Assembly (NCBI GenBank): GCA_013697955.1
Contig: JACCVV010000041.1
Location: 1 to 64,000 of the forward strand
Reading direction: 5' to 3'
DNA: 64,000 bases
Source of the DNA: Tatlockia sp.
GTDB lineage: Bacteria; Pseudomonadota; Gammaproteobacteria; Legionellales; Legionellaceae
The translations under genes were made by a program, and so were the position numbers. This document shows positions 29,472-53,163 of the stretch, piece after piece (position 1 is the first letter of the stretch; each line of letters begins with the position of its first letter). The notes below the pieces were generated by a model. That model did no database searches and was not told the origin of the DNA. It saw only the letters and a program-made list of their open reading frames with translations.

Positions 29472-31694
29472 TTAAAGAGTCAAGCTAACCTCAGATTCAC
29501 CTTTTCTCTCAAAAATTTGTTTAAATTGTTCAGTAGCTTCCTTTAGTAACCCCTTTTGGCCTGTCATTAAATCAGAATTCGTTTTTTTATTGATATGATA
29601 TTTAGATTTATGCTGAAAAAAATCGCCATTATAAGAGTTATCAATTTTATTTATTGTTTTCTCTAACTGAGTTGGGGCCTTAATTATATGTTTTACTTTT
29701 TTTGAAAATAATTTGTAATTTTCTTTGATAGATTTCATCCTTTTTGCTTCATCTATCAATAAAATTAGAGAGGAGTCGGTGCTCTTATCAGAAGTGATTT
29801 CATTATGTTTTCCAGCAGGATTTTTCAAAGGTTGAATATCCAACATTTTATTCGCCATTTTTTTCAATTCATAAAGAATATAATTTTCCATATTTTTTTT
29901 GAAATCAGCATAGGTTTCGTATTTATCAGGACTATTTTTGATAGTTTCCAGTTTGAACACATCAGGCAAAAATTTTCGTATTTTCTCAGTCAAAATAATA
30001 GGCTTGTCTTCTTGGGCTTTTCTGCGCTGTAATCTTATATTTTGTTGAAAATTTCGTTCTGAGCTTTTAAGCGCAAAATATTCGTCCAAGGTGGAGGCAA
30101 ATAGATAACTTTGAAAGTAGCGCTTGTAGAAATTTTCTTTTTTCACTGTCAAATCAGAGCCTTGGTCTTCAGCTGCTTCTTCATTGATAAGGGTATGCAA
30201 GTTTTTTTGAATCTCATAAAACTTATTGAGTGGCTTTTGACCCGTTTGGGTAAGTATTTCGCCACAAATTATGGCAAATGCATAAATATCGGTGTAAATA
30301 TCGTAAAAATTCAAGTTTGCATTCGCTAAGTCAAATCCAAGATTTTTAAGGTCCTTCAAATACCATAGTGCAGGATGAATATAGGGATCCGTGCCAGTTA
30401 ATTTTTTATTCTGTTCACCAGTACCGATAAGAATGGCACTTTCATAATCAACAAGCCGAACTTTTTGGACTTTTTCATTTTCAAAGGAAACCTTAATATT
30501 TGTAGGTTTAAGATCTCTGTGCAAAAGTTTATATTTTTGATGGAGTTTTATAAGTTGTTCCATCAAATCAATTATTAATTCAAATTGAGTTTTGAAACTC
30601 AGCTCTTTTTTTTGAGTACAATAATTTGACCAAATATCATCCTGATTCACTTCATGATTCAATGAATAGATCACATCAAGGTAGGTGACGCCCTCTATAT
30701 ATTTCATAAATAAGGCATAGGCTTTTTTATCTGTATTACAAATGCCAAAATACCAACCTATCGTACTAAGGTTTTTAATTTCACGTTTCTGCAAGGTTTT
30801 ATACATTAAATCAGATAAATCATAGAATAATTTTACTGCTATAACTTTACAATTAAGAAGATCATACCCTTTAACTACTGTAGTAAAAGCACCCTTCCCC
30901 TCGATCTGTTTATTATTAATTAAAATTGCTGTTTTATCTTTAGTTACCAAATTTGTTTTAATATCCCGATTAGGCATTGTTACAAGCTGTAAGTTGGGAT
31001 CATTTAATTCAATTTTCTCTGTTTTCCCATCTTTTTTATTTAATGTATATTTTGATTTAGACAAAATTTGGTCAATAATTGACTTATCTAAAGGGATTGT
31101 TTCATAAAAGCGCTGTTCTTTTGAAAGTTCTCTTTTCACGGCATTACTTGTAAACAATCTTGGCGTAGGTAACTTACGATTAGATTGAGAAGTAGGGCTC
31201 TCCTTGGAATTGGAATCCTCTGATCTGTCTTCCTCTGTTTTATCTCTTGGAGGGGAAATAGATAATATATTGGCCGCGAGATTTAACATTTTTACTGCAG
31301 AAGTTGATGAGGTACGAGTTCTCACAGGAGATTGGTTTGATGATCTTTCATTAGGCGCTTCAGAGAGATTACTAAGGTGGGTTGTACTGGTAGATGTTGC
31401 GCTTGTCATAAAGATAGGATTTGAATTGGAATATGAAAAAGAACCGTTTGAAATCGAACCGGAGGAATTTGTGGGGCTATTAGGTGCTGAACTACTAGAG
31501 TGAGTAACTTTATATGCTTGATGGTAGGCTTTAATTGTTGTCGATCTTTCTTCTTTTAATCGTGAAGCTTCCTGTTTATCCATATCAACTAAGATTGCTT
31601 GCCTTTGTTCATGACTCAGGTAGGGATTTTTTTGAATCGTTTCACGCCATTTTTTTAAACTTTCTGATTTAAATTCCATTTTTTTACTTTCCAT
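29472..31694 (-). CDS. eukaryotic-like Ser/Thr protein kinase, candidate effector
   Basis: A 740-aa protein (ATG 31694) with a protein-kinase domain at about 260-500: glycine loop E-G-K-G-A-F-T-T-V-V, catalytic Lys in I-A-V-K (K288), helix-C Glu (about E305), catalytic loop H-R-D-L-K-P-T-N (392-399) and Asp of a D-Y-E in place of DFG (416-418). All key residues are there, so it should be active. N-terminal residues 60-180 are Ser/Asn-rich and probably disordered; the C-terminal 240 residues are helical, Lys-rich and unrecognised. No signal peptide or membrane segment. Such kinases in Legionella are often Dot/Icm effectors (LegK family); that is inference. Low-GC codon use fits a horizontally acquired gene. 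Confidence 0.8.
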   Translation of the reverse strand: MESKKMEFKSESLKKWRETIQKNPYLSHEQRQAILVDMDKQEASRLKEERSTTIKAYHQAYKVTHSSSSAPNSPTNSSGSISNGSFSYSNSNPIFMTSATSTSTTHLSNLSEAPNERSSNQSPVRTRTSSTSAVKMLNLAANILSISPPRDKTEEDRSEDSNSKESPTSQSNRKLPTPRLFTSNAVKRELSKEQRFYETIPLDKSIIDQILSKSKYTLNKKDGKTEKIELNDPNLQLVTMPNRDIKTNLVTKDKTAILINNKQIEGKGAFTTVVKGYDLLNCKVIAVKLFYDLSDLMYKTLQKREIKNLSTIGWYFGICNTDKKAYALFMKYIEGVTYLDVIYSLNHEVNQDDIWSNYCTQKKELSFKTQFELIIDLMEQLIKLHQKYKLLHRDLKPTNIKVSFENEKVQKVRLVDYESAILIGTGEQNKKLTGTDPYIHPALWYLKDLKNLGFDLANANLNFYDIYTDIYAFAIICGEILTQTGQKPLNKFYEIQKNLHTLINEEAAEDQGSDLTVKKENFYKRYFQSYLFASTLDEYFALKSSERNFQQNIRLQRRKAQEDKPIILTEKIRKFLPDVFKLETIKNSPDKYETYADFKKNMENYILYELKKMANKMLDIQPLKNPAGKHNEITSDKSTDSSLILLIDEAKRMKSIKENYKLFSKKVKHIIKAPTQLEKTINKIDNSYNGDFFQHKSKYHINKKTNSDLMTGQKGLLKEATEQFKQIFERKGESEVSLTL

Positions 31695-32063
31695 GACACC
31701 CAAATAAAAATTGAAAAATTAATTTAATTTAACCTGATCATGCATTAATTTGAAGCTGATTATACATGTAAATGTCATTTAATCTATAAATTATGATTTC
31801 TGGCTCTACTACCACATGTATAAAAAAAGGTATCTATGAATAAATTTAACTTGAGTTTTGAAAATGTGTGATATAACCTCATGAATTTTAACATGTTTAA
31901 AAAAAATTCCAGAAATTTTTTGAGCCTACTAAATTTTCTTGGCTTTTCCTCATCATTTTCAAGATCCGGTGATAAGTATTACTTAAGAGCTATAAGAATC
32001 TGTATAATCGAATAGACGCAAATAAAACAATACATACTGTTTTAAAAAGGTTCTTTTTGCATT
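31695..32063. other. divergent intergenic region, AT-rich
   Basis: About 370 bp of very AT-rich sequence between the kinase gene (minus) and the response regulator (plus). A TATAAT -10 at 32003-32008 lies about 55 bp upstream of the response-regulator ATG, with only a weak -35. No RNA gene, repeat or small ORF with a ribosome-binding site could be supported. Confidence 0.5.
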
Positions 32064-44688: not shown

Positions 44689-44828
44689 CAAAATCATCCC
44701 TAAATTTAAGCGCTTAAAAATAAGCTTGGTATAGCATTGATTTTTTGTCAATTTTCAAACTTGACGATGATAAATAAAAGGTATAAACCTTTATAGGTGT
44801 GTCTAAATTAGAAAGGAAGCATTTTAAG

Positions 44829-47800
44829 ATGAGCGGACTTGGCTCGGTAATTGTTCAGATTAGACAACTTTTTGAAAATTCAGCAGATAATTATCCAAAT
44901 AACCTTGCACTTATTTGTGATAATGTCGAATTGAGCTATCAAGAATTAGAATCTCGTAGCAATCAGTTTGCTAATTATTTAATTAGCCAGGGCGTTAATG
45001 AGAACCACAGTATTGGTATTTTATCTGAGCGCTCTTTAGATTGTTATTTATCAATACTGGCAATATTAAAAACAGGCGCCTCTTACGTTCCAATCGAAGC
45101 AGAGTATCCTGATGAGCGAATAAATTATATTTTTTCGGATATGCCCTTTCATTCAGTGATTACTTCAGATAGACAATTTGCTCGCCAGACGAATATTAAT
45201 TTCCCCAAAGTACAGTTATTAAGCCAAATAAAGGCAGAAATTGCGAAACAGTCCACAAGCCGGCCGCCCCTTTCACGCACTTCAGATGATCAATTATGTT
45301 ATGTAATTTATACCTCCGGCTCGACAGGGAAGCCCAAAGGCGTTGAAATTACTCATCGCAATATCTGTCATTACATAGCCGTGGCTAGTGAGCTATATCT
45401 AATGTCTCCCCTAGATAAGGTGTATCAAGGCTTTTCATTAGCCTTTGATGCGTCTATGGAGGAACAATGGATGGCCTTTGCAAATGGTGCAACGCTTATT
45501 GCTTGCACCTCAAAAGACATTCGCTCAGGCGTTGGCTTAGTAGAATTTTTAGACAAACATAAGGTCAGTGTTTTTTCAACAGTTCCCACCTTGTTATCCA
45601 CTCTTCATGATGATTTGCCGTCATTAAGAGTGCTTATTTTAGGCGGCGAAGCCTGTACTGAAAATCTGGTAAACCGTTGGAGCAGACCAGGTCGTCGAAT
45701 TTTCAATACCTATGGACCAACCGAAGCAACAATTATAGCCACCTATTCAGAGTGCCATGCGGAAAAACCAGTCACAATTGGCAAAGCGCTGCCTGGTTAT
45801 GAAATTTTGATAGTCGATGAACAATTTCAGCCCCTACCACAGGGCCAACAAGGGGAATTATGTATTGCAGGCCCAGGTATTGCACGCGGGTATGTCAATC
45901 GTCCTGACCTTACAGCCATAAAATTTATAGCCCATCCCAATGATAATAAACAACGTTTATATCGAACCGGTGATTTGGCTACGATCCTGGAAAATGGCGA
46001 TATTCAGTTTTTAGGCCGGATTGATGATCAGGTTAAACTACGTGGGTTTCGCATTGAGCTTAATGAAATTGAATCCATTATGATGGAACATGACTCAATC
46101 TCTCAGGCCGTTGTCGCCTTACAAGAATTAGAACAGCCAACCCTTGTTGCTTACTTATCTACCAATTCTAAATTTGATTTACCCAGCTTTAAAAGCTTTT
46201 TAAAACGACGATTGCCGCATTATATGCTGCCCTCCCATTATGAAATCGTTACCCACTTTCCCTTATTAGCCAGTGGAAAAATTAATCGCAAAGAACTTCC
46301 TAAACCTGCAAAAGTGGTGAGGGAACCTGTTTCTGATGGCCCTACTACCGAGTTGGAACAGATTATAATCAATATTTGGGAAACTCATTTACAACAGAAA
46401 CACATTTCTATAAATGATGATTTTTTCTATGATTTAGGCGGACATTCTCTGTCAGCAGCGGCTGTTGTTTCAAACTTGAGAACACTTCCTGCTATGCAAC
46501 ATATTTCAATGGTTGATTTGTATCAAAATTCAACCGCAAAAAAATTAGCGGAAAAATTCTCCATCAATGAAGCGCCTTTTAACCAGGAAAATTTAAGAAA
46601 GAAAAACCGAAGCAAGCCCACGATTGGTTATTATTTCTGCTCAATTGGCCAATTTTTCGGTTGTTTACTGCAATATGCTATCAATGCCTGGCAATTGCTG
46701 GCCATTATTATTTTTTATAATTGGATTACTGCAGATACAACGAGCTATTCCATAAAAGCAGTGGAAATATTTCTGGCACTTTTTATTGCCATGCCCGTTG
46801 TTTCGATGGCCTTTGTGATATCAGCCAAGTGGATTCTAGTAGGACGGGTGAAACCGGGAATTTATAAATTATGGGGCGGGTTTTATTTTCGATGGTGGTT
46901 GGCTAAACGTTTGCAGGAAAATGTTTTTTCGCCAAGCTATCTTCTTGGCTCGCCACTTCTACCTTTGTATTACCGCTTATTAGGCGCAAAGATCGGGAAA
47001 AACGCTTATATCGGTTCGGCAAGCCTTGCTAATCTCGATATGTTAACCATGGGCGATAATAGTTCAATTGGCTTTGATGCTCGTCTTACTGCCTATGTAG
47101 TTGAGGACGGCTGGTTAAAGATTGGCTTTATTAAAATTGGTAATAATTGTTTTGTCGGTGCACGCTCCGTTATCGGACTTAATTGCACTATTAAGGATGG
47201 AGCTTGTCTTGATGATATGTCCCTTTTACAAAACGGCAGATCCATTCCCGAAAATCAGTTTTATTCAGGCTCGCCCGCCTCGCCGATTATGAAATCACCA
47301 GAACACATTTCTGCACAATACAAGGGAAATGATAACCCTTCACTACTGAAGAAAGTTACCTTCGGATTTTTACATTATTTTTCGCTTATCTTTACTATGT
47401 CGGTTTATTACATTTGCTATTTGCCTGCACTGATTTTGATTTCTTATTTCCATAGTAATAGCAATTATCTTTTAACCATTTTATTTGCCATTCCTTTAGG
47501 AACCATTATTTTCCTTTGCTCCTATTATCTGAGCATCGGAATCTTAAAAAAAATTCTGATGAATAAAGTAAAACCCGGTATATATCCCCTTCTTAGCCTG
47601 CACTATCTAAGGCAGTGGACGATTGTCAAAATGCTGGATACCGATGAAGTTTCCGTATTGGCAGATACGCTTTATTTCCCCTACATTCTGCGCTTTTTAG
47701 GAGCCAAGATAGGTAAACGGGTGGAAATGGGCGAAACACCACATATTATTCCCGATTTAGTAACTGTTCAGGACGAAGGCTTTACAGCCAGCGCAGTTGC

Positions 47801-48767
47801 GTTAGCCTGGCCAACTATTTTCCAGGGTTCAATCAAATACGCGCCCGTTCAAATTGGTAAACGAGGTTTTGTTGGTAATGATAGTCTGCTACCGCATGGG
47901 GCTAATATCGGCAATAACGGATTGCTAGGCTGCATGTCGACCACACCGCCTGGAAATCAGGCAGCTAATGATCATTCAGCCTGGCTGGGCTCGCCTGCTA
48001 TTTTTCTTCCGAAAAGGGAAATTTCATCAGACTATACCGATAATGAAACCTTCACACCTCCCAAACGCTTAATTCGCATCCGATTTGCGATTGAATTTAT
48101 CAAAATTATATTACCTACAATGTTTGCCTTAACGGGCCTCTTTAATATGCTTTATGTTTTAAATGTATTATTTGGCCATTATTCCTTTCCTTCGATTGTC
48201 GCTCTTTTACCTTTAGCGGAAGTTGTTATTGCCTTTACCATGGTTACTGCAATTGTTGGCTTGAAATGGCTGCTTCTAGGTCGTTTAAAACCGATGACGA
48301 AACCCATTTGGAGTGCTTTTATTTGGAAAAATGATATTGTGAAATATTTATATAGTTATTTCGTCGACTCTTATTTTGTACAATTTGTAATCGGCACACC
48401 CTTTATTTCAATGCTGTATCGTGCCTACGGAGCAAAGATCGGTAAACGTGTATTTATCGATTCCAGTGATTTTGGCGAATTTGATTTGGTAACCATTGGG
48501 GATGATGTTTGTATTAATTATGAAGCTGTAATCCAAACGCATCTTTATGAAGACCGTATTTTCAAAATGTCGACTATTCATATTGCTAGCGAATGTAACA
48601 TCGGAGTCGCTTCCATAGTGCTTTATAGTACGATAATGGGTAAAAATTCAACTCTAGGGGGTTTCTCACTACTCATGAAAGGCGAACACCTCCCTGAAAA
48701 TACTAATTGGCAAGGAATCCCAGCTCAACATATGAAATATAATTTGGAATCGGATGTTATTGCTTAG
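44829..48767 (+). CDS. Pls/PosA-type NRPS with three membrane/LbetaH repeats
   Basis: A 1312-aa membrane NRPS-like enzyme with the plan of epsilon-poly-L-lysine synthetase (Pls, about 1319 aa). Adenylation domain about 10-500 (Y-T-S-G-S-T-G-K-P-K-G; G-K-I-N-R-K-E-L); carrier domain with phosphopantetheine Ser540 in G-G-H-S-L. Then three repeats of about 240 aa, each of membrane helices, a K-x-x-L-x-x-R/K-V/L-K-P element and a left-handed beta-helix starting G-A-K-I-G-K (near 719, 961 and 1202). No condensation or thioesterase domain. Pocket residues read by hand against GrsA give D-A-E-S-I-G-T-I-I-K, near the lysine code D-A-E-S-I-G-S-V-C-K. ATG 44829 is chosen over GTG 44799 because AGGAAG precedes it. 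Product not proven. Confidence 0.85.
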   Translation: MSGLGSVIVQIRQLFENSADNYPNNLALICDNVELSYQELESRSNQFANYLISQGVNENHSIGILSERSLDCYLSILAILKTGASYVPIEAEYPDERINYIFSDMPFHSVITSDRQFARQTNINFPKVQLLSQIKAEIAKQSTSRPPLSRTSDDQLCYVIYTSGSTGKPKGVEITHRNICHYIAVASELYLMSPLDKVYQGFSLAFDASMEEQWMAFANGATLIACTSKDIRSGVGLVEFLDKHKVSVFSTVPTLLSTLHDDLPSLRVLILGGEACTENLVNRWSRPGRRIFNTYGPTEATIIATYSECHAEKPVTIGKALPGYEILIVDEQFQPLPQGQQGELCIAGPGIARGYVNRPDLTAIKFIAHPNDNKQRLYRTGDLATILENGDIQFLGRIDDQVKLRGFRIELNEIESIMMEHDSISQAVVALQELEQPTLVAYLSTNSKFDLPSFKSFLKRRLPHYMLPSHYEIVTHFPLLASGKINRKELPKPAKVVREPVSDGPTTELEQIIINIWETHLQQKHISINDDFFYDLGGHSLSAAAVVSNLRTLPAMQHISMVDLYQNSTAKKLAEKFSINEAPFNQENLRKKNRSKPTIGYYFCSIGQFFGCLLQYAINAWQLLAIIIFYNWITADTTSYSIKAVEIFLALFIAMPVVSMAFVISAKWILVGRVKPGIYKLWGGFYFRWWLAKRLQENVFSPSYLLGSPLLPLYYRLLGAKIGKNAYIGSASLANLDMLTMGDNSSIGFDARLTAYVVEDGWLKIGFIKIGNNCFVGARSVIGLNCTIKDGACLDDMSLLQNGRSIPENQFYSGSPASPIMKSPEHISAQYKGNDNPSLLKKVTFGFLHYFSLIFTMSVYYICYLPALILISYFHSNSNYLLTILFAIPLGTIIFLCSYYLSIGILKKILMNKVKPGIYPLLSLHYLRQWTIVKMLDTDEVSVLADTLYFPYILRFLGAKIGKRVEMGETPHIIPDLVTVQDEGFTASAVALAWPTIFQGSIKYAPVQIGKRGFVGNDSLLPHGANIGNNGLLGCMSTTPPGNQAANDHSAWLGSPAIFLPKREISSDYTDNETFTPPKRLIRIRFAIEFIKIILPTMFALTGLFNMLYVLNVLFGHYSFPSIVALLPLAEVVIAFTMVTAIVGLKWLLLGRLKPMTKPIWSAFIWKNDIVKYLYSYFVDSYFVQFVIGTPFISMLYRAYGAKIGKRVFIDSSDFGEFDLVTIGDDVCINYEAVIQTHLYEDRIFKMSTIHIASECNIGVASIVLYSTIMGKNSTLGGFSLLMKGEHLPENTNWQGIPAQHMKYNLESDVIA

Positions 48768-50083: not shown

Positions 50084-50698
50084 CTAGTCTTCATCTCCCG
50101 GCCATCCCTCAATTTTTATGTTGAAATGATTTAATAAAGAAAGGGCATCAGGTAGAGAGAATCTAGCATGGGTAATCAAATTTTCCACAGGATTAATAGA
50201 GTAATTAAGTGCATTTGTGAAATCAGCTTTTTTTAATTTCGTCCGCATAAATAAAGAATTCTGCAAATCCGAACCCACAAAACTTGCATGATTTAAATTA
50301 GCTTCCCTGAAATCAACCTCATGGGCCTTACAGTTTTCAATAATCAAATCAGCAAGCTCCAAACTATAAAAACTCGCATGACTGATGTTGCTTTCATAAA
50401 AATAGAGCGGACTTGTTAATTTAACCAAAGGCCAGCTTAGTTCTGTCCAATTGATACCCACAAGCTTTGAGCCTTTAAATGAAACTTCAGAAAACTGACT
50501 ACCTGGAAATTTACATAGGGAGAGGTCAGAGTCAACAAAATCACAGTCAGAAAATTTAACCTTTTTGAAGGTAGTGTTAGCCCATTTACATTGTTTGAAT
50601 AAGCATTGCTCAAACTCCATTTCTTCAAATAAATTATCATCCAGAACAAAGTCGAGGAAGGTTTGATTCTTGTAGGTTTTTGTTTTAAATGCAGGCAT
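50084..50698 (-). CDS. pentapeptide-repeat protein (Qnr/McbG-like)
   Basis: A 204-aa right-handed beta-helix protein. Residues 20-165 are made of A(D/N)LXX-type pentapeptides with the central Leu/Phe, such as F-S-D-C-D, F-V-D-S-D, L-S-L-C-K and A-N-L-N-H. Length and the C-terminal cap with L-N-Y-x-I-N-P and R-F-S-L-P-x-A-L-S-L-L match the Qnr/McbG group, which mimics DNA and protects gyrase. Chromosomal qnr-like genes are known in several aquatic bacteria. Quinolone protection is not established here. It is convergent with the hydrolase and its ATG overlaps no other gene. Confidence 0.82.
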   Translation of the reverse strand: MPAFKTKTYKNQTFLDFVLDDNLFEEMEFEQCLFKQCKWANTTFKKVKFSDCDFVDSDLSLCKFPGSQFSEVSFKGSKLVGINWTELSWPLVKLTSPLYFYESNISHASFYSLELADLIIENCKAHEVDFREANLNHASFVGSDLQNSLFMRTKLKKADFTNALNYSINPVENLITHARFSLPDALSLLNHFNIKIEGWPGDED

Positions 50699-50761
50699 AA
50701 TCTACTCAAAATTATAAAAAAAACTATAATAGCTGTCTTATCTATCCTATTAAGGAAAATA

Positions 50762-51853
50762 ATGAAAGGGATTTTCAAAAAAGGCTTTACTGCTGTCGTT
50801 TTTACATTAAGCCTTATCCAACCCGTTAATGCCTGCACACGAGCTCTCTTTGTTGGTGAAAATAATAGTGTAATTACCGGCCGCTCTATGGATTGGGTCG
50901 AAGATATGGGTTCCGATTTATGGCTCTTTCCCAGAGGATTAGAGCGAGCTGGCGAGGCCGGACCTCAATCCCTGCAATGGACTTCCAAATACGGATCAAT
51001 TGTTGCTTCAGTCTATGGAATTGCTAGTGCGGATGGCATGAACGAGCAGGGCCTTGTCATGAATATGCTTTATCTGGCTGAAAGCGATTATGGAAATCTG
51101 GAACCTTCACATCCACCCATGGCTATTAGTTTATGGGGACAATATGCCCTGGATAATTTTGCGACAGTTAATGAAGCCGTTATCGCCATGGAGGCTAAAC
51201 CTTTCTATTTGATTCCACCTACCCTACCTAATGGTGAAAAGGGGCAGGTGCATTTGTCCTTGTCTGATTCCAGCGGCGACTCAGCTATTTTTGAATATAT
51301 AAAAGGCAAACTGGTAATACATCATGGTCGAGAATATAAGGTGATGACCAATTCGCCAACTTATTCTAAGCAATTAGCGCTTAATGAATATTGGACAGAA
51401 ATTGGTGGGAATCTATTTTTGCCAGGTACAAGTCGGGCCGCTGATCGATTTGTAAGAACCAGTTTTTACATCAATACGATTCCAAAAACCATTGACAAAG
51501 CTTATATCAAATCGGTTCCAAATCAGTCTTTCGACCATCAGGCAGTCGCGGCCGTTATGTCGGTCATGCGAGCGGTAAGTGTGCCCTTTGGGATTACAGT
51601 ACCCAATCAACCAAACATCGCGTCGACCATTTGGCGAACTGTTTCTGATCAGAAAAATAAAATTTATTATTTTGATTCATCAACTCGCCCCAATACGTTT
51701 TGGATAACTTTTAGTCTACTTAATTTTACTCCCGGTGCACCGATTCAACGATTGGCTTTAGCTGATGGACAAATCTATTCCGGTGAAGTTTCGGGTCTTT
51801 TTAAACCAGCCCACTCCTTTAAATTTATGCCTGCTGTGCAGAGTCCCAACTGA
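50762..51853 (+). CDS. secreted Ntn amide hydrolase (choloylglycine/penicillin V acylase family)
   Basis: A 363-aa N-terminal nucleophile hydrolase that cleaves linear amide bonds. From ATG 50762 (AAGGA upstream) the signal peptide runs to Ala24, so signal-peptide cleavage after VNA frees Cys25 as catalytic N-terminal residue (C-T-R-A-L-F). Other family residues are seen in G-R-S-M-D-W (Arg, Asp) and later Asn and Arg. Family members hydrolyse bile-salt conjugates, penicillin V or N-acyl homoserine lactones; which applies cannot be told. It sits between a secreted alpha/beta hydrolase and a secreted M20 peptidase near the NRPS. Confidence 0.85.
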   Translation: MKGIFKKGFTAVVFTLSLIQPVNACTRALFVGENNSVITGRSMDWVEDMGSDLWLFPRGLERAGEAGPQSLQWTSKYGSIVASVYGIASADGMNEQGLVMNMLYLAESDYGNLEPSHPPMAISLWGQYALDNFATVNEAVIAMEAKPFYLIPPTLPNGEKGQVHLSLSDSSGDSAIFEYIKGKLVIHHGREYKVMTNSPTYSKQLALNEYWTEIGGNLFLPGTSRAADRFVRTSFYINTIPKTIDKAYIKSVPNQSFDHQAVAAVMSVMRAVSVPFGITVPNQPNIASTIWRTVSDQKNKIYYFDSSTRPNTFWITFSLLNFTPGAPIQRLALADGQIYSGEVSGLFKPAHSFKFMPAVQSPN

Positions 51854-51870
51854 ACTTAAATATAGGATCT

Positions 51871-53163
51871 ATGATGCGTAAAATAATCATGTTTATCTTC
51901 CTGTCTACTTTAATGCAGGTGCTCAATGCTGCAAGTTTATCGCCAGTAGAGAAGAAAATCGCTAACCACGTCACTGCCAATCAAGAAGAACAGATCGCTT
52001 TATTGAAAAAATTGGTCAACATCAATAGTGAAACGTCAAATATCAATGGGGTTCATAAGGTTGGTGAACTGTTGCAGGCAGAATTTAATAAACTTGGCTT
52101 TAAGACCTGGTGGATTGAGGAGCCTAATTTTATGCATCGCGCCGGTACATTAATGGCCGAACGTCAGGGATCAACAGGCAAAAAATTATTATTAATCGGC
52201 CATCTCGACACAGTCTTCCCTGCTAACAGAAAACTTCATCATTTTGAGCGTCAGGGACATTTTGCCACAGGACCGGGTGTGCTGGACATGAAAGGCGGCG
52301 ATGTGGTGATGGTTTACGCTTTGAAAGCCTTGAATGAAGTAGGAGCTTTGAATAACGCAACCATCAAAATTGTTTTGACAGGAGACGAAGAAGATTCAGG
52401 TAAGCCCTTAATCATTTCGAGAAAACCCCTTTTTGAAGCGGCTCGCCACTCTGATGTGGCTCTGGATTTTGAACATAGCATTTCCAAAGATACCGCTACT
52501 ATTGCCAGGAGAGGAATTTCCAAGTGGACTGTTGAAACAGAAGGCCAGGAAGGACACTCTTCACAAATATTTCAACCTTCGATGGGTAGTGGCGCTATAT
52601 TTGAATTGGCCAGAATTTTAGATACCCTTCGCAATCAGTTTGCAAAGGAAAATAATTTAACCTTCAATCCAGGTCTTATTTTAGGCGGTAATGAAATCAG
52701 CTTTGATAAAAACCTCACTGAGGGTAAGGCTTCAGGAAAAGATAATGTCATCGCCAAAACTGCTGTAGCCACAGGTGATATTCGGTTTTTATCCTCGATG
52801 CAAAAATCCAAGGCCATGGAAAAAATGAAATCGATAGTCAAGGGAAATTTGCCAGGCACTCAGTCAAACATCGTGTTTCAAACCGGTATCCCAGCAATGC
52901 AGCCATCAGCTGCGAATTTAAACTTGTTGAAAGAATATAGCGCTGTTTCCGAATTATTAGGCTTTGGGAAAGTAAAACCTTTGCCAGTTGGTTTAAGGGG
53001 CGCGGGTGATATTTCCCACATTGCCTCAATAGTAGCTGCAAATCTGGCCGGACTCGGGCCGGTTGGAGTTGGAGCCCATTCAATACAGGAAAAATTAGAT
53101 ATTAACTCGCTCCCGATTCAAACCACTAGAGCTGCGGTGTTGATGTATCGATTAGTACAATAA
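51871..53163 (+). CDS. secreted M20 metallopeptidase (glutamate carboxypeptidase-like)
   Basis: A 430-aa zinc exopeptidase like Pseudomonas CPG2. A signal peptide covers 1-20 (ending LNA). Zinc ligands H111 and D113 (G-H-L-D-T-V), bridging D139 (G-V-L-D-M-K-G-G) and E173-E174 (G-D-E-E-D-S-G) are visible; the dimerisation domain inserts at about 210-325. Enzymes of this type cut C-terminal Glu or other residues from peptides and N-acyl amino acids. The gene follows the Ntn hydrolase by 17 bp on the same strand, so both are probably one transcript. Confidence 0.9.
   Translation: MMRKIIMFIFLSTLMQVLNAASLSPVEKKIANHVTANQEEQIALLKKLVNINSETSNINGVHKVGELLQAEFNKLGFKTWWIEEPNFMHRAGTLMAERQGSTGKKLLLIGHLDTVFPANRKLHHFERQGHFATGPGVLDMKGGDVVMVYALKALNEVGALNNATIKIVLTGDEEDSGKPLIISRKPLFEAARHSDVALDFEHSISKDTATIARRGISKWTVETEGQEGHSSQIFQPSMGSGAIFELARILDTLRNQFAKENNLTFNPGLILGGNEISFDKNLTEGKASGKDNVIAKTAVATGDIRFLSSMQKSKAMEKMKSIVKGNLPGTQSNIVFQTGIPAMQPSAANLNLLKEYSAVSELLGFGKVKPLPVGLRGAGDISHIASIVAANLAGLGPVGVGAHSIQEKLDINSLPIQTTRAAVLMYRLVQ

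What the first reader, a model, noticed from the sequence alone, without database searches (positions are those of the whole stretch)
44829..48767. Pls/PosA-type NRPS with a lysine-like specificity code
Seen: one adenylation and one carrier domain (Ser540), then three 240-aa repeats of membrane helices plus LbetaH, total 1312 aa, no condensation or thioesterase domain. Pocket residues, aligned by eye to GrsA, read D-A-E-S-I-G-T-I-I-K; the lysine code of bacitracin synthetase is D-A-E-S-I-G-S-V-C-K, and E at the third place suits a cationic side chain. Known: epsilon-poly-L-lysine synthetase has this plan at about 1319 aa. Inference: a cationic homopolymer or similar isopeptide is made at the membrane of an intracellular pathogen group not known for it.
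Basis: partly seen in the sequence, partly recalled or inferred. Interest (0 to 1): 0.85.

Follow-up and report, generated by a model that had tools for sequence, protein, structure and literature searches.

The report
Likely polylysine-making enzyme in Legionellaceae
A single gene in a relative of Legionella encodes a membrane enzyme of a known family that strings one positively charged amino acid, here most likely lysine, into a short polymer, which matters because this group of amoeba-dwelling bacteria is not known to make such polymers.

Summary
The 1312-residue ORF at 44829-48767 is a one-module A-T synthetase with three membrane/beta-helix repeats; it passes NCBIfam's Pls/PosA model (570.6 bits, cut-off 423.1). 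The genome is Legionellaceae: 47 of 143 family genomes carry the domain at E<=1e-60, 45 over the cut-off. Of 45 pockets read, 44 keep the lysine-type pattern, one has Tyr for the first Asp. Outside the pocket the A domain is less like lysine-type enzymes (35%) than like a diaminobutyrate-type one (43%), yet its pocket matches them 8/10 against 3/10; lysine-code rows do not group together (AU p 0.0245). A histidine in the third repeat is present in all 86 rows that reach it: a candidate condensation residue. The gene stands alone, in differing settings, under purifying selection. Best reading: epsilon-oligo/poly-L-lysine synthetase, a new member of a known kind. Ornithine is the main rival. No activity or product is shown.

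The parts
44811..44819 (+). purine-rich ribosome-binding-like stretch before the ATG
   Evidence: read; by eye
44829..48767 (+). Pls/PosA-family synthetase gene, 1312 aa
44871..46280 (+). adenylation domain (AMP-binding and AMP-binding_C, residues 15-484)
   Evidence: TIGR01733 419.6 bits (cut-off 317.4)
45447..45737 (+). stretch with pocket residues 1-9 (D207 A208 E211 S250 I270 G272 T294 I302 I303); the tenth, K484, at 46278-46280
46365..46553 (+). carrier (thiolation) domain, phosphopantetheine site Ser540 at 46446-46448
46626..47354 (+). terminal-domain repeat 1: helix pair plus left-handed beta helix (residues 600-842)
47355..48074 (+). terminal-domain repeat 2 (residues 843-1082)
48075..48752 (+). 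terminal-domain repeat 3 (residues 1083-1308), with the motif QTHLYEDR and H1238 at 48540-48542

Best explanation
A membrane-bound epsilon-oligo/poly-L-lysine synthetase. The A domain makes lysyl-AMP and loads lysine on the phosphopantetheine arm of Ser540, which the genome's one phosphopantetheinyl-transferase match (PF01648) would install. The three-repeat membrane domain then joins lysines repeatedly through the side-chain amine, with the third repeat (H1238) as the likely condensation site, giving a short polycation at or through the inner membrane. Shown here: domain plan, pocket residues, repeats, conservation, selection. Inferred: substrate, isopeptide linkage, polymer length, role of H1238, export, and any biological use (most plausibly against competing microbes or fungi).
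For: TIGR02353 570.6 bits over a 423.1 cut-off and no C or TE domain. The pocket fragment finds PosA (105.6 bits) and S. albulus Pls 7WEW (93.6) in the PDB, the next hit being tyrocidine synthase at 56. Pocket DAESIGTIIK against DAESIGTVV printed for Pls; Ala at position 2 is what the PosA paper ties to lysine (PMC10522769). Of 45 Legionellaceae pockets read, 45 keep A-E-S at positions 2-4 and 44 keep D-A-E-S-[IV]-G-T-[IV]-[IV]-K. Pocket match to the two Pls-type references 8/10 despite 35% identity outside it; the other four references gave PosA 5/10 at 40%, Dab-type 3/10 at 43%, DLED-type 5/10 at 41%, DFEA-type 5/10 at 43%. The pocket sits in two lineages not joined in the tree. All 99 positions conserved in at least 97% of 86 other full-length rows are kept in the window protein. 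dN/dS 0.05-0.10 in the four pairs computed (0.031/0.608, 0.080/1.045, 0.182/1.834, and 0.096/1.81 for the window pair, dS there near saturation). One PF01648 match in the genome.
Against: No product or activity is known. The PosA M218A mutant, with Ala at position 2, still preferred ornithine over lysine (kcat/KM 474 against 27.6; PMC10522769), so Ala alone does not make a lysine enzyme. Positions 8 and 9 are I/I rather than V/V, and position 9 touches the substrate in PosA. It does not group with actinobacterial Pls and lacks their partner peptidase gene. Not all copies need be active: G024 has Tyr for the pocket Asp, G070 has a stop inside and the open frame of G060 is only 1139 aa. The rows used for conservation include 42 of its own family. 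The structure prediction could not be run.
Confidence: 0.7

Rival explanations
1. Same enzyme plan, but the monomer is ornithine (or a mixture), giving delta-poly-ornithine as PosA does.
For: PosA with Ala at position 2 keeps its preference for ornithine (PMC10522769). PosA is the Gram-negative member whose product that paper shows, and the code nearest to PosA's was likewise the bacitracin lysine domain.
Against: Five of ten pocket positions match PosA, eight match Pls. Positions 4, 5 and 9 are S, I, I, not H, N, S, and S313 matters for ornithine in PosA. Homologues in other proteobacterial genomes that look PosA-like keep DMEHNGTV[ST]K.
Confidence: 0.13
2. The carrier-bound lysine is not polymerised but passed to another acceptor (a lipid, polyamine or surface sugar) by the acyltransferase-like terminal domain.
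For: The terminal domain is built of hexapeptide-type repeats. No product is known in this branch. The gene stands alone.
Against: The terminal domain keeps the near-invariant residues of the family, and the characterised members named in PMC10522769 make isopeptide homopolymers.
Confidence: 0.1
3. The monomer is another cationic amino acid such as beta-lysine or arginine.
For: PMC10522769 reports a family member with modest activity on arginine, and a beta-lysine polymer enzyme is known.
Against: Their codes are DSECYGGVTK and DGESISVVNK; the window's is neither. No lysine 2,3-aminomutase was seen by eye among the neighbours listed; only eight window proteins were scanned against NCBIfam.
Confidence: 0.04
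4. A dispensable, decaying gene without present function.
For: Patchy: 4 of 22 genomes of its own genus. G070 has a stop inside and G060 a short frame.
Against: dN/dS 0.05-0.10 in four pairs and conservation of key residues.
Confidence: 0.03

Closest known systems
epsilon-poly-L-lysine synthetase Pls of Streptomyces albulus (A domain PDB 7WEW)
   Same: A-T plus three-repeat membrane domain (PMC8117764); pocket the same at 7 of the 9 printed positions, the other two V to I; no C or TE domain
   Different: About 35% identity outside the pocket to two Pls-type A domains (Embleya, Arthrobacter), not one clade with them, no partner peptidase gene beside it
delta-poly-L-ornithine synthetase PosA of Acinetobacter baumannii (PDB 8G95-8G98)
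   Same: Gammaproteobacterial, solitary gene, same architecture, pocket Asp and Glu kept
   Different: Pocket DMEHNGTVSK; 40% identity in the A domain outside the pocket and 30% in the terminal domain
gamma-poly-diaminobutyrate-type synthetases (here Streptomyces sp. NBC_01527, so typed from its neighbours, not by test)
   Same: Family and architecture; 43% A-domain identity, as high as any of the six references compared
   Different: Pocket DFECLSAVTK, 3 of 10 shared; beside diaminobutyrate-aminotransferase and aspartate-kinase genes

Membership tests
Pls/PosA family (cationic homo-polyamino-acid synthetases, TIGR02353) | Terminal domain over the curated cut-off | tested here: met
   570.6 bits against 423.1, residues 614-1299
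Pls/PosA family (cationic homo-polyamino-acid synthetases, TIGR02353) | One A and one T domain, no condensation or thioesterase domain | tested here: met
   Pfam scan at E<=0.001; Ser540 in GGHSL
Pls/PosA family (cationic homo-polyamino-acid synthetases, TIGR02353) | Six membrane helices in three pairs with three tandem related domains | tested here: met
   hydropathy; repeat-to-repeat profile matches; no 3D model (structure machine busy in nine tries)
Pls/PosA family (cationic homo-polyamino-acid synthetases, TIGR02353) | Pocket Asp and Glu at positions 1 and 3 | tested here: met
   D207, E211
Pls/PosA family (cationic homo-polyamino-acid synthetases, TIGR02353) | Makes an isopeptide homopolymer | not testable with these tools
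   needs biochemistry
epsilon-poly-lysine synthetase (Pls) as a clade | Lysine-type pocket with Ala at position 2 | tested here: met
   DAESIGTIIK against 7WEW DAESIGTVV
epsilon-poly-lysine synthetase (Pls) as a clade | Groups with actinobacterial Pls in a tree | tested here: not met
   two changes of label, one clade AU p 0.0245, group tested after a first tree was seen; the quick C-terminal tree also separates them
epsilon-poly-lysine synthetase (Pls) as a clade | Operon with a PldII-type peptidase gene, as in Streptomyces and Corynebacterium | tested here: not met
   no gene accompanies it across the settings among 43 loci compared; the window's M20 peptidase is the fourth gene downstream and matched none of the other loci
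PosA (delta-poly-ornithine synthetase) | Pocket DMEHNGTVSK | tested here: not met
   5 of 10 positions

The most novel reading that the evidence does not exclude
About a third of Legionellaceae make an epsilon-lysine polycation with an enzyme whose lysine pocket arose separately from that of the soil actinomycetes, carried by a solitary gene found in about a dozen gene settings, and used in life inside or beside amoebae. A single histidine of the third beta-helix repeat does the polymerisation throughout the family.
Probability: 0.3. Interest if true: 0.7.

Novelty: new member of a known kind. Interest (0 to 1): 0.45.

Why it matters
It would give an amoeba-dwelling bacterial family a secreted or membrane-held polycation of the kind used as a food preservative, with a natural set of 45 pockets already read. 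If the separate origin of the lysine pocket holds, it is a natural test of what makes these A domains choose lysine. The conserved His and Glu in the third repeat make the unexplained polymerisation step of the whole family testable in harmless producers.

Tried and rejected
Rejected: that the code is a by-eye misreading (structure-numbered alignment agrees); that this is an ordinary multi-module NRPS (no C or TE domain; the only TIGR02353 match over the cut-off in the genome); that the neighbours form a conserved cluster (in the stretch compared, window flanks match only G135, five genes, and G127, one gene); that the choloylglycine-hydrolase-like and M20 genes downstream are a degradation partner (the first matches only G135, the second none).

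Led nowhere or weak: the search for related loci in genome contigs found only two relatives. PDB alignments with the whole A domain printed only gramicidin synthases until a pocket fragment was used. At E<=0.001 the family search is unspecific (105 of 143 genomes, 13 of 14 control genomes), so I count at the cut-off or 1e-60, where 1 of 14 controls (Corynebacterium glutamicum) rings. The first rpoB tree was wrong because minus-strand loci were not reversed; one search replaces it. There the pls tree keeps the ten g26 rows together but puts the window's gene with G005 of another genus before its own genus-mates G127 and G123, which hints at transfer; G005 has a very long rpoB branch, and the rpoB of G022 falls among g26, so deeper comparison is unresolved. 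Two loci (L078, L085) of the 45 fell out of the neighbour comparison through my motif and length filter. Of the 47 genomes at 1e-60, G003 (contig cut) and G078 (not fetched) gave no pocket; G020 lies below that line. The A-domain quick tree had 51 rows; the careful one used 41 (12 of the 21 Legionellaceae rows, L160 left out), and the lysine-code group was tested after the quick tree had been seen, so its p is not blind.
Full report
What is there. The ORF at 44829-48767 (+) encodes 1312 residues with one adenylation domain, one carrier domain with Ser540, and a terminal domain that passes the NCBIfam model for the Pls/PosA family (570.6 bits, cut-off 423.1). No condensation or thioesterase domain is found. 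Hydropathy gives three helix pairs, and the three repeats of 226-243 residues match each other by profile (99.8-100%).

The pocket. I numbered the pocket on PosA, whose crystal structures name the residues (PMC10522769; I read parts 1-4 of 8, the Discussion and search passages). The fetched A. baumannii protein reproduces D217, M218, E221, H260, N280, T304, V312, S313. The window protein reads D207 A208 E211 S250 I270 G272 T294 I302 I303 K484. A PDB search with the pocket fragment finds PosA first, S. albulus Pls (7WEW) next, then a wide drop (105.6, 93.6, 56 bits). The printed 7WEW alignment gives D-A-E-S-I-G-T-V-V. That paper ties position 2 to chain length: Phe for the shortest monomers, Met for ornithine, Ala for lysine. 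It also shows that PosA with Ala there still prefers ornithine, and that the code nearest to PosA's was the bacitracin lysine domain although its substrate is ornithine. So lysine is likely, not certain.

Where it occurs. 47 of 143 Legionellaceae genomes have the domain at E<=1e-60 and 45 pass the cut-off; 1 of 14 control genomes, Corynebacterium glutamicum, does too. In a class sample 9 of 369 genomes do at 1e-60, three of them Legionellaceae; in a phylum sample 27 of 398, the window's genome included. Pockets were read for the window and 44 other Legionellaceae genes: 20 DAESIGTVIK, 17 DAESIGTIIK with the window, 4 DAESIGTVVK, 2 DAESIGTIVK, 1 DAESVGTVIK, and 1 YAESIGTVVK, which lacks the pocket Asp. 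Two of the 47 genomes (G003, G078) gave no pocket. Among the non-Legionellaceae rows most carry DMEH, DLED or DFE-type codes. DAESIGTVVK was read in one other gammaproteobacterium (G206, with a stop inside the gene), in Embleya and Arthrobacter, and in a scaffold labelled as a phage.

Pocket against the rest. Outside the ten pocket positions the window's A domain is 35% identical to the Embleya and Arthrobacter enzymes (Embleya matches 7WEW at 650 bits), 40% to PosA, 41% to an Azospirillum DLED-type, 43% to a DFEA-type and 43% to an enzyme beside diaminobutyrate-aminotransferase and aspartate-kinase genes. In the pocket it is 8, 8, 5, 5, 5 and 3 of 10. With pocket columns removed, the lysine-code rows need two changes on the tree and holding them as one clade is disfavoured (11.65 log units, AU p 0.0245; tested after seeing the quick tree). 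The C-terminal quick tree also puts Legionellaceae apart. Either the lysine pocket arose twice or it is old and was lost between; the tree is unrooted and cannot decide. Both readings suggest that the pocket is held by selection.

Conservation and mechanism. All 99 positions conserved in at least 97% of 86 other full-length rows (42 Legionellaceae, 44 others) are kept in the window protein. In the third repeat a motif near Q-T-H-L-[YF]-E-D-R carries H1238, present in 86 of 86 rows with a residue there (one of 87 rows has a gap), and E1217 is kept in 86 of 87. The aligned places in repeats 1 and 2 of the window protein are not His. I therefore propose, as inference, that the third repeat holds the condensation site. 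PMC4668381 (passages seen) says all three tandem domains of Pls are essential, which is compatible but shows that the first two matter as well. dN/dS is 0.05-0.10 in four pairs. The carrier domain needs a phosphopantetheinyl transferase: one PF01648 match was found in the genome, in line with the single Sfp-like enzyme reported for 15 Legionella (PMC5126622; outline, one section and passages seen).

Setting. Flanking genes of 43 of 45 loci were clustered. 28 of 43 share one upstream gene and 27 the next; 23 of 43 share two downstream genes. By eye these look like a dienelactone-hydrolase gene upstream and panC/panB downstream (names recalled, not scanned). The 15 loci printed fall into about twelve settings. 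In the stretch compared the window matches only G135 (five genes) and G127 (one gene). No partner gene travels with it across settings, unlike Streptomyces and Corynebacterium Pls, which have a peptidase gene beside them (PMC8117764, Results read). posA of A. baumannii is also solitary (PMC10522769). GC of the gene (39.6%) is close to the window's (38.0%). It was not found in 18 of 22 genomes of its own genus.

What is known. NCBIfam already holds the Pls/PosA model. PMC10522769 describes the family as widespread, with two groups of lysine-code enzymes; its main text has no occurrence of Legionella and its supplement could not be read. Six searches of the open library that name Legionella gave no paper that, from what I saw, reports such an enzyme or polymer there; a seventh, on the polymer family, returned only PMC10522769. 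PMC5126622 lists a prevalent one-module 'cluster F' with A, T and C domains; whether that is this gene I cannot tell.

Verdict. A real, intact, conserved Pls/PosA-type synthetase, most likely for epsilon-oligo/poly-L-lysine: a new member of a known kind in a family not known for it, with a pocket history and a candidate catalytic residue worth testing.

Noticed in passing
L170 (MT835761.1, phage collection): An 'UNVERIFIED Bacteriophage sp.' faecal scaffold carries a full Pls-type gene with the pocket DAESIGTVVK; it groups with Embleya and Arthrobacter in the A-domain trees and looks like a bacterial contig.
   Followed up: partly
G024 (L084, also L041): A relative with Tyr in place of the otherwise constant pocket Asp (YAESIGTVVK), with the rest of the pocket kept.
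   Followed up: no
G070:C1:378072-380122, G206:C1:32428-34491 and G060:C2:113581-115632: Pls-type genes with a stop codon inside (G070, G206) or a short open frame (G060, 1139 aa); described only.
   Followed up: no
window 50663-53163: Choloylglycine-hydrolase-family gene (PF02275) followed by an M20 peptidase gene; the first has a match beside the G135 gene, the second matched none of the compared loci.
   Followed up: partly
window 29472-31703 (-): A 743-aa protein that by eye looks like a eukaryotic-type Ser/Thr kinase; not scanned.
   Followed up: no
G000:C62:66410-82201: Several NRPS-type adenylation matches in long open frames (1321, 1748 and 3169 aa) in the same genome, apart from this gene.
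   Followed up: no
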